A stretch of 34,608 nucleotides of DNA from Candidatus Avelusimicrobium aviculae (lineage in GTDB: Bacteria; Elusimicrobiota; Elusimicrobia; Elusimicrobiales; Elusimicrobiaceae), in contig CALUXF010000016.1 in NCBI GenBank assembly GCA_944324655.1, forward strand, positions 1 through 34,608, read 5' to 3'. The notes under the pieces were generated by a model. The model did not search any database. It saw nothing but the letters and a program-made list of their open reading frames with translations, and was not told where the DNA came from. This document shows positions 1,558 through 33,592 of the stretch, one piece after another. A program made the position numbers and the translations under genes. Each line of letters opens with the position of its first letter. Position 1 is the stretch's first letter.

Positions 1558-2943
1558 CTAGTTTGCTATTTTGGGAGAAAGGGCTTCCAGGGAGTTTAAC
1601 TCCGCCTCTATATTTTCCAAGTGGTTCCATACCACATTATGCAGTTTTTTTAACCGCATATAATATGCCTTTACATACAATTTTTGGGAAAGGGCCAGCG
1701 GAGTGTTCATAACCGTGTTGGGTTTGTTTTTTTCTTGCTGTTGAAGAAATTCTATTGCCCCTATACGTTGTTTTATATTATTTAAAATATCGGTATAAGC
1801 CGTGTCCCAATGTCTTAATAATTCCAAATGGGCCTGTATTACCTGACGGTTTGCCTGAGCGGAAAGCGGCGCTTTGGAAAATCTTAACCCGGCGCTGCGG
1901 GCTTGTTTCAGTTTTTCTTCTATGGCGCTTCTGCGGACTGTTTCGTTCGGGTTCAGCAGCAGCCATTGGGCGGTGGAAGGGTCCAAATACGTAAGCGCGC
2001 CCAGCACGGCGCCGGATTCTTCTGCCGGCAAAAGGGAAGCCAAATCCAAAAATAAATTGGCTTGTTCTTCACTCCAGGTTTTTCCCTCTTTTAACGGTTC
2101 TATTAACAGCGCTTCTTTATGGCGCAGGTAAGTGAGTAATTCTTTGCCCATAGCCGGGGGGACCCAGCCGTCCATTTTAACCGCGGGTATTTCGTGCAGC
2201 ATATTAATGTATAAAAGGGTTAAATCCGGGCCGGCCAATTCCGCGGTTTTGGCTACATGCCGGCTTAAAGCTAATTTTTGCTGGGTCGTTAAGTTGGTAT
2301 TAAAAATTTTATCAAACACTTGGCTCAAAGAAGAATATTTACCCTGTGAGATCTCTTTTGCGGTTACCCCGCAAGCATAGAGCGGATGCTGCGGATTAAC
2401 CGGGAATTTGGTGGGGCCCATGGAAACGGACTGGCGGCCGGGTGTTTGCCAGGAAAGATGCTTCTGGCCGTTCAAAAAGGCTTCTTGGAAGCGGTTAATG
2501 TGCTGTTCGTTGTCTCTTAAGAATAAGAATTGTTTTTTAGCGGAACGTGCGGGAAAAGATAAGGGAAAAACAAGCCGCTGCGTTTGCTGCGACAGCGGAG
2601 CAATGTTTTGGCTTAATATGTCAAATACGGTTTTTTCGTCCGCTCCTTCCGGGATATATATTCCCAGTTGTTTTAATAAATCCAGTTGGGGTTTAAACTC
2701 TTTATCCTGCAGTATGCCCGGCATGCGGACAAGGGCTCTTCGTACTTGTTGGAAGGCCAGAAGTTGGTTTTCTTTAAGAAAGAATTGTTCCGCTGTTAAC
2801 GCTTTTGTTGAGCCGGCCGTTTCCAGCGCTTTTTGTGCGGCTTGTTTTAAATAACGGCTTTGGGCGAATAAAGAGCCGGACGGCGCTAAAAAACAACCGG
2901 CCAGCAACAAAATAAAAAAATAGTTTTTATCGGCGTGTTTCAT
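1558..2943 (-). CDS. Secreted protein of unknown function, tandem paralog B
   Basis: The 461-residue product has a signal peptide ending near LFAQ (about residue 28). The rest is a Leu/Gln-rich, probably helical protein that parallels its neighbour at 69-1547 along most of its length: an N-terminal block with KENQLLAFQQVRRAL, a central MGPTKFP / HPLYA block, then WSEEQANLFLDL and ALTYLDP. It is the first gene of the pair. A -35 (TTGTTG, 2977-2982) and -10 (TAGCAT, 2953-2958) 18 bp apart lie upstream, directly below a GGCC-rich element. There is no clear Shine-Dalgarno sequence before the ATG. I recognise no family. Confidence 0.8.
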   Translation of the reverse strand: MKHADKNYFFILLLAGCFLAPSGSLFAQSRYLKQAAQKALETAGSTKALTAEQFFLKENQLLAFQQVRRALVRMPGILQDKEFKPQLDLLKQLGIYIPEGADEKTVFDILSQNIAPLSQQTQRLVFPLSFPARSAKKQFLFLRDNEQHINRFQEAFLNGQKHLSWQTPGRQSVSMGPTKFPVNPQHPLYACGVTAKEISQGKYSSLSQVFDKIFNTNLTTQQKLALSRHVAKTAELAGPDLTLLYINMLHEIPAVKMDGWVPPAMGKELLTYLRHKEALLIEPLKEGKTWSEEQANLFLDLASLLPAEESGAVLGALTYLDPSTAQWLLLNPNETVRRSAIEEKLKQARSAGLRFSKAPLSAQANRQVIQAHLELLRHWDTAYTDILNNIKQRIGAIEFLQQQEKNKPNTVMNTPLALSQKLYVKAYYMRLKKLHNVVWNHLENIEAELNSLEALSPKIAN

Positions 2944-2952
2944 ATTCTTTAT

Positions 2953-3018
2953 ATGCTATCAAACAGAATTGTACGCCAACAAGGGTCATAGGGCCTATAT
3001 GGGTTTAGGCCTTTTGGC
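2953..3018 (-). promoter_or_regulatory. Promoter plus GGCC-rich upstream element (copy 1)
   Basis: On the minus strand, TTGTTG at 2977-2982 and TAGCAT at 2953-2958 are 18 bp apart and precede the gene starting at 2943. Immediately upstream (2980-3018) is an element with GCCAAAAGGCCT, ATATAGGCCC and GACCCTTG. Related sequences occur at 18935-18971 and 32545-32579. Confidence 0.45.
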
Positions 3019-3052
3019 GCCGCAACTGTTCCCGGTACTACCGGAAAAACAC

Positions 3053-3082
3053 AAAAAAACCGGGGGCGTTTGCGGCCCCCGG
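3053..3082 (-). terminator. Terminator of the lexA-like gene
   Basis: CCGGGGGC (3060-3067) pairs with GCCCCCGG (3075-3082) around a 7-nt loop. It is followed on the minus strand by a run of seven T (3053-3059). A second GC hairpin (3135-3142 with 3152-3159) lies between it and the stop codon, giving a 3' leader of about 120 nt with no gene in it. Confidence 0.8.
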
Positions 3083-3171
3083 TGAGGTTACGACTAATTG
3101 CCCCAGGGTTTTTTAACCGCTGCGGCGTTTGCAGGCGCGGGGTTTCGGCCTCCCCGCGCGCAGCAGGAAAA

Positions 3172-3780
3172 CTAACAGCTTACGTTTCTTTTGATAATGC
3201 TTCTGACAATGCCTTCTACATGAAAGGTTTGCGGGTCCGCCACAATGGGGGTATAAAACGGGTTTTCGGACTGTAAGATCACGCTGTCCCCGTCTTTGCT
3301 AAAGCGCTTTACCATTACTTCCCCGTTATTTACGCAAACCACCACGTCTTTGTTTTTGGGGGAGTGGTTTATTTCCACAATCAGCCAGTCTTTGGGGGAA
3401 ATGAGATGTTCCATAGAGTCCCCTTTCGCTTCCACCATAAACCCTTTGCAGGCGGGGAAATACACCATGCTGGGGTCCACCGGTACAATGCGGGTGGGGG
3501 TGCCGTCTAAAATGGTTCCGGCGGGGCCGCATTTGGCCATGCCGTACATTTTTAAATAGATGACGTTGCGCTCCGGGTCTTTTAAAATAATATAGTCTCG
3601 CGGGTTGGCCGGGTTGCGTTTTAAATAGCCTTTCTTTTCCAGCTGTTTAATGTGGTGGAAAACCACACTTTTGCCGCATACGTCCAACCGGTCGGCCAGT
3701 TCTTCCATGGTAAGCGGGTCCGAAATATTATTTTTTAAAATTTCCAGCAGTTTGATTTGTTTGGGGTGTAAGGCTTTCAT
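3172..3780 (-). CDS. lexA: LexA-type SOS repressor (S24 peptidase family)
   Basis: The 202-residue protein has the LexA layout. Residues 1-65 form a winged helix-turn-helix. A hinge with an Ala87-Gly88 bond (in CGPAGT) is the expected self-cleavage site. The C-terminal S24 domain has Ser122 in GDSMEH and Lys158 in VMVKRF as the catalytic pair. In the known family, RecA filaments trigger cleavage and derepress DNA-repair genes. The start is supported by GGGAGG 5 nt before the ATG. A strong promoter overlapped by a perfect tandem repeat lies just upstream and suggests autoregulation. It stands alone between terminators. A LexA-like regulator of another regulon is the main alternative. Confidence 0.85.
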   Translation of the reverse strand: MKALHPKQIKLLEILKNNISDPLTMEELADRLDVCGKSVVFHHIKQLEKKGYLKRNPANPRDYIILKDPERNVIYLKMYGMAKCGPAGTILDGTPTRIVPVDPSMVYFPACKGFMVEAKGDSMEHLISPKDWLIVEINHSPKNKDVVVCVNNGEVMVKRFSKDGDSVILQSENPFYTPIVADPQTFHVEGIVRSIIKRNVSC

Positions 3781-18934: not shown

Positions 18935-18971
18935 GGGACCAAAAGTCCTATATAAAAACAGGCCTTTTGGC
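18935..18971. repeat. GGCC-rich intergenic element (copy 3)
   Basis: CCTATAT, then six variable bases, then AGGCCTTTTGGC, match the element at 2980-3018 with the same spacing on the same strand. The positions 5' of CCTATAT differ. It lies in the gap after the tRNA and before the small gene at 19069. Confidence 0.4.
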
Positions 18972-19068
18972 AGTTGGCGAAATGTCCTAATAATTGTTAG
19001 GCTGAAAGTGCGGGGGGATAGCCCCGGCGGAAGAATATTCCGGCGCGTTAGGTTTTGTTTTTAATCCT

Positions 19069-19335
19069 GTGCTTACGGACAAAGGCTTGGCTATTAAAAT
19101 CAATACCGAGGTATTGGGTTGGGACGGCTTGGATTTAAAAGGCGCTCTTCTTTCCGTAACGGAAGATGAAACCGGATTAAAAGTGAATTTTAAAATGACG
19201 CAGTGCTATAGTAAAAAGAAAGTGGCTCAAAAATCTTTTGAGGTGTTGGTCCCTTCTGAAAAAGACTCTTTAACCGCCCAACAATTAAGCGCAATGGCGG
19301 CTAAAAAGATTCGTTTGGCGTTCGCCGGCAAATAA
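19069..19335 (+). CDS. Small hypothetical protein, probably 5'-truncated or frameshifted
   Basis: From a GTG at 19069 this encodes 88 residues (for example KINTEVLGWDGLDLKGALL). The frame stays open upstream to 19006 and reads like protein (APAEEYSGALGFVFNP), but contains no start codon and no ribosome site. A run of six G at 19012-19017 joins this frame to another open frame upstream, so a single-base indel there could have split the gene. I recognise no family. It is followed by a strong terminator. It may be a pseudogene, or its true start may be disrupted by a sequence error. Confidence 0.4.
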   Translation: MLTDKGLAIKINTEVLGWDGLDLKGALLSVTEDETGLKVNFKMTQCYSKKKVAQKSFEVLVPSEKDSLTAQQLSAMAAKKIRLAFAGK

Positions 19336-32305: not shown

Positions 32306-32470
32306 TCAGCGGTTGGATACGGCTTCGGCCAAACGTTCTACGGAAAGGCGGTTTTTGGAACCGGCGGGATGGTTATCGCTGTATACGTTCAGCTTGTTTT
32401 GTTCTTTCACCACCACTACTTTTTTATTTCCTAGCGCCAGCAAAAAGCGTAAGTTGTTGGTTTTGGTCAT
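32306..32470 (-). CDS. Small conserved-looking protein of 54 residues
   Basis: An ATG at 32470 opens 54 codons. The product is basic (for example LLALGNKKVVVVKEQNKLNV, then a C-terminal LSVERLAEAVSNR) with no signal peptide or membrane helix. Support comes from signals on both sides: a promoter (TTGCTT / TATCTT, 17 bp) with the GGCC-rich element above it, GGAG 9 nt before the ATG, and a strong terminator 16 nt after the stop. I recognise no family; a small nucleic-acid-binding or regulatory protein is possible. Confidence 0.68.
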   Translation of the reverse strand: MTKTNNLRFLLALGNKKVVVVKEQNKLNVYSDNHPAGSKNRLSVERLAEAVSNR

Positions 32471-32518: not shown

Positions 32519-32579
32519 AAGATAACGTTTTCATCAAACAAAAGCAAGGGCCTTTGGGCCTAGGGCTGGTTTAGGTCCT
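32519..32579 (-). promoter_or_regulatory. Promoter with GGCC-rich upstream element (copy 2)
   Basis: On the minus strand TTGCTT (32542-32547) and TATCTT (32519-32524) are 17 bp apart. Directly upstream (32545-32579) lies GGACCTAAACC, TAGGCCC and GGCCCTTG, matching the order of blocks in copy 1 (2980-3018), and likewise touching the -35. Confidence 0.5.
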
Positions 32580-32617
32580 GTACAATTACTATATGTATTT
32601 TGTTAAAATAATCAAGT

Positions 32618-33592
32618 ATGAAAAAATATTTTTCTCTTTTCTTCTTCTTGTTTGCGGCAATTTCCGCTTTTGCGCAGCTGCAAATAACGGAACCTTTGCT
32701 TTTAATTAACCCCGGGAGGGAAACTTTTATTAATTTCCCTTCCAATACGCTGCCGGGTAAAACGGTAACGTTTTTTCTGCCGGAAGAAAAAGTGCCTTTA
32801 AAAGGGCGCTATCCGGTGGTGTATGTGTTGGGGGCTGTTCCGAAAGACGCCCAAGCGGCCGCCCAGTTCATTGCCCGGGCTGAGCCTAAACCCTTAGTAG
32901 TGGGTATTAATTTAACCCCGGAAGACTTGGCAGATGCCGCCCGTGTAACCCGCTTTTTTACCCAGGAACTAATCCCCTATGTGGACACGAACTACTCCAC
33001 GTTGGCGGACGCTTCCCACCGGGCGCTGATTGCCGTGGGAACAGAAGGGGGAGTGGCTTCTTTCTCTCTTTTGTACCGGCATTTATTGTTTTCCAAAGCG
33101 TTGCTTTTGCAGGTGGACCCGGCGTTATTAAACGCAATGGCTCTGCCGCGGGATTTGCGTTTAATGGCGGTGGGAGACCGGGAGTCTTTGGCCGGTTTTC
33201 AAGCTATGCTGGAGAAAGCCCGTTTTCACTATGGGCAGCATTTTGTTTTAAGGGAAGGAAAAGAAGAAAAACCTTTTGAGGAAACCCCTTTTCCTTATTG
33301 GTTTGCCGATAAGAAACAAGTATCCATTAAAAAATTGGATTGGAATATTTTCCCGCGTAAATTCGCTTTGTCTTCCCCCGGGGCGAAAGTGGACATAGTG
33401 GCCCGTTTGAAGAACGGGGAAAAATACAATTTTTACCCGTCCTCTTTACTAATCAGTCCGCCGGTTTTGGAGTGGAACGCGGAAAAGGGAAGCCTGTCCT
33501 CCATATCCGGCGCGGAGCCTGGGCGCGTAAAACTAACCGTAAAAACGCCTTTAAAAGACTTTTCCGCCAAAATTACGCTTAAAAAACAATAA
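32618..33592 (+). CDS. Secreted esterase-fold protein with altered nucleophile motif
   Basis: The 324-residue protein has a signal peptide ending SAFAQ (about residue 19). Residues 45-220 resemble the esterase D/Fes alpha-beta hydrolase family: YPVVYVLG, PLVVGINL, FFTQELIPYVDTNYST and RALIAVGTEGG. In that family the last block is GxSxGG with the nucleophilic Ser; here Thr takes its place, so activity is doubtful. Residues 235-324 look like a beta-rich Ig-type domain. There is no Shine-Dalgarno, and TAAAAT lies 8 nt before the ATG. Confidence 0.68.
   Translation: MKKYFSLFFFLFAAISAFAQLQITEPLLLINPGRETFINFPSNTLPGKTVTFFLPEEKVPLKGRYPVVYVLGAVPKDAQAAAQFIARAEPKPLVVGINLTPEDLADAARVTRFFTQELIPYVDTNYSTLADASHRALIAVGTEGGVASFSLLYRHLLFSKALLLQVDPALLNAMALPRDLRLMAVGDRESLAGFQAMLEKARFHYGQHFVLREGKEEKPFEETPFPYWFADKKQVSIKKLDWNIFPRKFALSSPGAKVDIVARLKNGEKYNFYPSSLLISPPVLEWNAEKGSLSSISGAEPGRVKLTVKTPLKDFSAKITLKKQ

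What the first reader, a model, noticed from the sequence alone, without database searches (positions are those of the whole stretch)
2980..3018. Recurrent GGCC/CCTA-rich element of about 35-40 bp in three intergenic regions
Copy 1 (2980-3018) and copy 2 (32545-32579) share blocks in order on the minus strand (CCTAAACC, TAGGCCC, then RCCCTTG), and each ends at the -35 of a predicted promoter. Copy 3 (18935-18971) shares CCTATAT and AGGCCTTTTGGC with copy 1 at the same spacing. None lies in a well-supported gene. It may be a binding site for a global regulator or a dispersed repeat family.
Basis: seen in the sequence. Interest (0 to 1): 0.6.

Follow-up and report, generated by a model that had tools for sequence, protein, structure and literature searches.

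The report
Shared promoter element for exported proteins
The three look-alike stretches are copies of one gene-control site, conserved across a class of mostly uncultured bacteria, that sits at a fixed place in the promoters of genes for proteins the cell exports, which points to an unknown master regulator.

Summary
The three copies belong to a family of ~42-bp elements, read towards the gene: GGCCAAAAGRCCYA-N6/7-TATAGGYCYTTTGRCCCTTGTT. A two-part profile finds 22 sites in 434 kb of this Elusimicrobiales genome and 8 in 400 kb of a second genus, against 0 in shuffled and reversed controls.

The element ends in the -35 box. Of 84 non-redundant sites, 57 have a TAnnnT -10 at the two positions expected for a 17-18-bp spacer; in 21 an ATG sits where transcription should start. 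Downstream genes mostly encode signal-peptide proteins without known domains. Copy 1 serves gene 2943-1558. Copy 2 serves a conserved 54-aa protein at 32470-32306. Copy 3, in the sister species, precedes a signal-peptide gene whose 5' part is missing here.

Best reading: a two-dyad operator for an unidentified, class-wide activator binding at about -42 and -67. Activator rather than repressor is inferred from the fixed geometry. The regulator was not found. A dispersed mobile repeat is rejected. The papers searched report no such element.

The parts
2978..3019 (-). Copy 1: full element (left dyad, 6-nt gap, right dyad ending in -35 TTGTTg), pointing to the gene at 2943-1558. Best-scoring member in this genome.
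   Evidence: Profile score 34.5-35.0; R1 54.3 bits, but it is one of the sequences R1 was built from; R2 42.9 bits, likewise
2953..2958 (-). Predicted -10 (TAGCAT) of the copy 1 promoter, offset 19 from the element
   Evidence: Sequence and offsets; inferred
1558..2943 (-). Target of copy 1: 461-aa signal-peptide protein (MKHADKNYFFILLLAGCFLAPSGSLFAQ...), no Pfam family; starts 34 nt after the element
   Evidence: 15 of 25 relatives examined (this one included) keep the element
32543..32585 (-). Copy 2: element with full right dyad and a weaker outer left arm, pointing to the small gene at 32470-32306; -35 at CTTGCT, -10 TATCTT at offset 18
   Evidence: score 18.5-19.7; kept at the same place in 26 of 29 genus loci
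32306..32470 (-). Target of copy 2: conserved 54-aa protein (NLRFLLALG motif), no signal peptide, no Pfam or NCBIfam family
18936..18978 (+). Copy 3: nearly symmetric element, functional direction + by comparison with the sister species; here an orphan operator
   Evidence: Profile 22.5 on -, 17.4 on +; conserved in G151 upstream of a 182-aa signal-peptide gene
19020..19335 (+). Remnant of the copy 3 target: 3' part of the gene that is complete in G151; start codon and signal peptide missing here
   Evidence: Alignment with L241, ORFs
32618..33592 (+). Divergent neighbour of copy 2: 324-aa signal-peptide protein with its own leaderless-looking promoter; the element lies beside it but points the other way

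Best explanation
The element is a DNA operator with two dyads (each GGYC-N4-GRCC-like, arranged as an inverted pair about 24-25 bp apart) for one conserved, still unidentified transcription factor. The factor binds next to RNA polymerase, centred at about -42 and -67, and switches on sigma-70-type promoters. In many cases the mRNA starts at or within a few bases of the ATG. The regulon consists mainly of lineage-specific exported proteins (signal peptide plus an unknown domain, trypsin-like or TraB/Tiki-like proteins, endonuclease I), plus a conserved 54-aa protein in the family of this genome. Shown here: the motif, its intergenic and promoter-fixed position, its phylogenetic conservation, the signal-peptide bias. 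Inferred: that a protein binds it, that the protein is an activator, and the transcription start.
For: Profile hits: 22 vs 0 and 0 in the own-genome sample, 8 vs 0 and 0 in G071, which supplied no sequence to the profile. All 36 own-genome hits >=8 are intergenic although 91% of bases are coding. Fixed geometry: with elements found by R1, which holds no -10, the best -10 peaks at 16-17 nt from model position 1 in 16 of 51. In 84 sites TAnnnT stands at offset 18 (41) or 19 (16), mostly 0-5 and at most 10 at other offsets. ATG stands at offset 30-31 in 21 of 84. Of 16 unique own-genome sample sites >=14, 12 precede signal-peptide genes after correcting miscalled starts, binomial P 2.3e-4 against a 120/405 background. 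Of 6 unique G071 sites >=12, 6 do. In another order of the class 6 of 6 fetched loci have a signal-peptide ORF on at least one side, one with -10 at offset 18 and ATG at exactly +30. Orthologous conservation: 26 of 29 for copy 2, 15 of 25 for copy 1 and relatives of its gene, and upstream of the small protein in three of four genomes of two other genera.
Against: No regulator was found and no binding or expression data exist. The site overlaps the -35, so a repressor is possible. Match to the -35 consensus is not clearly worse than at other promoters, so activator dependence is not visible there. The signal-peptide call is my own loose heuristic (30% of all genes pass) and several starts were chosen by eye; with the gene finder's own starts 7 of the 16 pass. 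Some sites have no recognisable target: 15 of 84 had no ORF >=45 aa at offsets 15-130, several of them second-strand readings of a palindrome or near contig ends. In the own-genome sample two of 16 sites precede non-exported or unclear genes besides copies 2 and 3. At least six same-class families show no R1 hit; these may be true absences or lost sensitivity.
Confidence: 0.7

Rival explanations
1. Same operator, but for a repressor that blocks RNA polymerase at the -35, so that exported-protein genes are off until a signal removes it.
For: The right arm runs into the -35 hexamer. The -35 quality at sites is no worse than at other promoters with a good -10.
Against: The distance to the -10 is nearly constant in 57 of 84 sites, and both dyads lie upstream of or at the -35, as for class II activators; repressor sites usually vary in place. 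This last point is general knowledge, not tested here.
Confidence: 0.2
2. A dispersed repeat family (REP, BIME or MITE-like) that happens to land between genes.
For: Short, palindromic, tens of copies per genome, intergenic.
Against: Copies share a degenerate consensus, not a recent common sequence. They keep a fixed distance to the -10. They stay at orthologous places across species while flanks diverge, and copy 2 is missing where its target gene is missing (6 of 6).
Confidence: 0.03
3. An RNA element (hairpin attenuator, terminator or riboswitch) in the 5' leader.
For: The inverted arms could pair as RNA. Standard pairs in 72.7% of cells against 70.6% in column shuffles; covariation score 0.142 vs 0.112, reached by 3 of 500 shuffles.
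Against: The element lies upstream of the -10, so it should not be transcribed from the promoter it serves. The excess pairing is small. No Rfam match at the gathering score other than a tRNA.
Confidence: 0.03
4. The -35 part of a promoter for an alternative sigma factor.
For: A long conserved block at -35 and a constant spacer.
Against: The -10 looks like sigma-70 (TAnnnT) and the conserved block extends to about -75 with dyad symmetry, more than a sigma -35 contact.
Confidence: 0.04

Closest known systems
Class II activator promoters (CRP-type, activator centred near -41.5; general knowledge, recalled)
   Same: Dyad centred near -42, next to the -35, fixed spacing to the -10; a second dyad further upstream as in tandem-site promoters.
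   Different: Sequence GGYC-N4-GRCC is not a CRP/FNR box; a pair of inverted dyads ~24.5 bp apart; regulator unknown; many starts leaderless.
REP/BIME palindromic repeats (recalled)
   Same: Short intergenic palindromes, tens of copies.
   Different: Promoter-fixed, degenerate, orthologously conserved, upstream of genes with a common property.
CtsR/HrcA-type heat-shock operators (recalled)
   Same: Conserved operators near the -35 across a large group; GGGTCAAAGGRCC recalls the GGTCAAA repeats of CtsR.
   Different: Targets are exported proteins, no chaperone or Clp gene among the targets read; block spacing and dyad symmetry differ.

Membership tests
Conserved transcription-factor operator (regulon) | More copies than chance, outside genes | tested here: met
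   22 vs 0 and 0 in 434 kb, G071 8 vs 0 and 0 at >=14; 36 of 36 own-genome hits >=8 intergenic
Conserved transcription-factor operator (regulon) | Fixed place relative to promoter | tested here: met
   TAnnnT at offset 18/19 in 57 of 84; first seen with R1-only elements
Conserved transcription-factor operator (regulon) | Phylogenetic footprint at orthologous genes | tested here: met
   26 of 29 loci for copy 2, 15 of 25 for copy 1, copy 3 in the sister species
Conserved transcription-factor operator (regulon) | Targets share a function or property | tested here: met
   Signal peptides: 12 of 16 own genome, 6 of 6 G071, 6 of 6 loci of another order
Conserved transcription-factor operator (regulon) | A cognate DNA-binding protein | not testable with these tools
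   No candidate; the 54-aa protein is not co-extensive with the element; the histidine kinase near one site has it in 6 of 28 relatives
Class II activator promoter | Site centred near -41.5 and dependence on the activator | tested here: inconclusive
   Centre about -42 if the ATG is +1 in leaderless cases; dependence not testable, -35 not clearly weaker
REP/BIME/MITE repeat | Copies near-identical and at non-orthologous places | tested here: not met
Structured RNA family | Strong compensatory changes and transcription of the element | tested here: not met
   Weak pairing excess, upstream of -10, no Rfam match

The most novel reading that the evidence does not exclude
A class-wide master regulator of the exported proteome exists in Elusimicrobia. 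It may sit in the membrane (ToxR- or CadC-like), so that leaderless mRNAs for exported proteins are made next to the Sec machinery. That would explain why the common property of its targets is a signal peptide rather than a pathway.
Probability: 0.12. Interest if true: 0.85.

Novelty: new member of a known kind. Interest (0 to 1): 0.62.

Why it matters
Very little is known about gene control in Elusimicrobiota, most of which are uncultured. This gives a clear operator, a precise promoter geometry and a target list, so the regulator can be fished out with one piece of DNA. The element also marks which of the many unknown exported proteins of these gut and environmental bacteria are made together. 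It offers a natural test case for leaderless transcription under activator control.

Tried and rejected
Regulator search: the 54-aa protein behind copy 2 looked like a self-regulated regulator, but it was found in 28 of 149 phylum genomes, all in one family, while elements occur in another family of the order and in another order. In six same-genus genomes it and the site are missing near the neighbour gene (6 of 6), though all six have 4 to 23 R1 matches at E<=1e-3. A single-sequence AlphaFold model has three strands and one helix, mean pLDDT 69.9, too weak to search with; no fold search was run. The histidine kinase beside one site has the element towards it at score >=8 in 6 of 28 loci, its own included (28 of the 29 loci fetched), so it is not a steady target.

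Pfam names for 20 targets: most had none. Literature: 'Elusimicrobi' with promoter and leaderless, with regulon and binding motif, 'Elusimicrobium minutum' with genome and secreted, leaderless and signal-peptide terms, 'Elusimicrobiota' with transcription factor or secretome, E. minutum with complete genome and type IV pili. I saw only search listings and starts of abstracts; none describes this element. No paper was opened.

Searches with a rigid consensus were uninformative because the element is degenerate and its gap varies.

Rows dropped before counts: one search used 25 of 26 loci (one partial gene left out). One search used 29 of the 30 loci fetched (one at a contig end), which are the best-scoring of 51 matching genomes. 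One search used 29 of 30 loci (one was the second strand of copy 1). In the 12-of-16 and 6-of-6 signal-peptide counts I replaced starts miscalled by my gene finder by another in-frame ATG downstream of the site; with the caller's own starts 7 of these 16 pass, plus one read from the other strand of the palindrome. Signal peptides were judged by eye. Of the 12 small-protein targets, one was listed there in a wrong frame.

Full report
What was checked. The three copies are present at the stated coordinates. Their pairwise similarity is only moderately above chance, so I looked for relatives. The genome is an Elusimicrobiales metagenome bin: the best named records for a window protein are an unnamed bin (99% identity) and uncultured Elusimicrobiales (86-87%). 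G000 holds 1,624,153 bases in 53 contigs.

Family. BLAST of window 2900-3200 in 41 genomes returned, besides a conserved stretch behind lexA, the same ~40-bp element at unrelated places of several genomes. An alignment of eight copies gave model R1, which matched in 41 of 41 genomes at E<=1. Fifty-one elements from these searches were refined into a two-part profile. The consensus, read towards the promoter, is GGCCAAAAGRCCYA, a gap of 6 (31 of 51) or 7 (15 of 51), then TATAGGYCYTTTGRCCCTTGTT. The two arms are reverse complements of each other and each is itself close to a palindrome (GGYC-N4-GRCC).

Significance. In 433,687 bases of the own genome the profile gives 22 hits >=14, against 0 in a first-order Markov shuffle and 0 in the reversed sequence. 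In 400,000 bases of G071, a different genus not used for the profile, it gives 8 against 0 and 0. All 36 own-genome hits >=8 are intergenic, with 91% of the sample coding by my own gene finder; in G071, 3 of 15 hits >=8 are genic, all three scoring below 11. A sequence-only model that includes the -10 (R2) lists 36 rows at E<=1e-3 in the whole genome, which are 31 places once both-strand readings are merged. Several strong sites are read on both strands because of the symmetry.

Promoter geometry. In elements found with R1, which contains no promoter, the best TATAAT-like hexamer clusters at 16-17 nt from model position 1, in 16 of 51. In 84 non-redundant sites, TAnnnT stands at offset 18 in 41 and at offset 19 in 16; other offsets hold mostly 0-5 and at most 10. 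Part of these 84 loci were fetched with R2, which knows the -10, so and the G071 and other-order sites are the cleaner evidence. With the -10 at offset 18 the last bases of the element, TTGTTn, are a -35 at a 17-bp spacer. An ATG stands at offset 30 or 31 in 21 of 84; that is where transcription should begin, so those mRNAs would be leaderless. Taking that ATG as +1, the right dyad is centred at about -42 and the left at about -67 (inference).

Targets. Of 16 unique own-genome sample sites scoring >=14, 12 lead to signal-peptide proteins after correcting miscalled starts, against 120 of 405 genes passing the same loose test (binomial P 2.3e-4). The other four are copy 3, copy 2, one 82-aa protein beside a histidine kinase, and one site without a clear target. 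In G071 all 6 unique sites >=12 lead to signal-peptide proteins. In six loci (three genomes) of another order of the class, all 6 have a signal-peptide ORF next to the site, one with the -10 at offset 18 and the ATG at exactly +30. Over all 84 sites, 69 have an ORF in reach, 51 pass the signal-peptide test, and 12 of the 18 failures are the 54-aa protein. Most targets have no Pfam family. Named ones are Trypsin_2 (weak), Endonuclease I, ChaN/TraB-Tiki-like (weak), ankyrin repeats and one receiver domain.

Copy by copy. Copy 1 (score 34.5) points to the 461-aa exported protein 2943-1558, and 15 of 25 loci of that gene and its relatives, this one included, have a site >=8 upstream. Some of the others are second genes of tandem pairs or have little upstream sequence in the search range. 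Copy 2 lies between two divergent genes. In 26 of 29 loci the element is at the same place and points away from the exported protein 32618-33592, to a 50-55-aa protein with the motif NLRFLLALG. The small protein has the element in three of four genomes of two other genera (25.3, 20.2, 25.2; the fourth -2.8), and a weak one (8.1) in a diverged same-genus member. In six same-genus genomes without the small protein the site is gone too. Copy 3 has no complete target here. In the sister genome G151 the same element is followed by a 182-aa exported protein, while the window keeps only the gene's 3' part. So copy 3 is an operator that lost the start of its gene, and its functional direction is +.

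Distribution. With R1 at E<=1e-3, 53 of 149 phylum genomes match, all within one class: this family, a second family of the order, and 4 genomes of a family of another order. No genome outside the class is among the matches.

Mechanism. The constant distance to the -10 and the position of both dyads just upstream of the -35 fit an activator of class II type. Overlap with the -35 leaves a repressor possible, and the -35 boxes are not visibly weaker than elsewhere. RNA pairing is unlikely: the element is upstream of the predicted transcription start and its pairing excess over shuffles is small. A mobile repeat is rejected because of the footprints. The regulator is unknown; the small protein is not co-extensive with the element.

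Novelty. Searches of the open-access library (listings only) returned nothing on such an element. As a kind of thing it is a regulon with an operator, so a new member of a known kind. Its breadth (several families and two orders of a class), its link to signal peptides and its leaderless promoters are what a specialist would find surprising.

Noticed in passing
window 32306-32470 (-): Conserved 50-55-aa protein family (invariant L-R-F, A-L-G, Y in 15 members), no Pfam or NCBIfam match, found in 28 of 149 phylum genomes, all in one family.
   Followed up: partly
window 3053-3111: Stretch 60-120 nt behind the lexA-like gene (3172-3780) conserved in eleven same-genus genomes, containing GGTGAGGTTACGACTAATTGCCCC beside a terminator-like hairpin; no Rfam match.
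   Followed up: no
window 19020-19335: Exported-protein gene complete in the sister species has lost its start and signal peptide here; real deletion or assembly fault not resolved.
   Followed up: partly
window 32590-32618: The gene 32618-33592 and its relatives share leaderless-looking promoters (TTTTGTTAnAATA or GATATGATACAATAA a few bases before the ATG) unrelated to the element.
   Followed up: no
L114:1573-2757: Predicted exported protein with a receiver-like domain (PF00072, E 1.4e-7) behind a signal peptide, an odd combination.
   Followed up: no
L088:2820-2941: Three-armed version of the element between a histidine kinase (dCache, HAMP, HisKA, HATPase) and an 82-aa leaderless-looking gene; the kinase link is not conserved (6 of 28).
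   Followed up: yes
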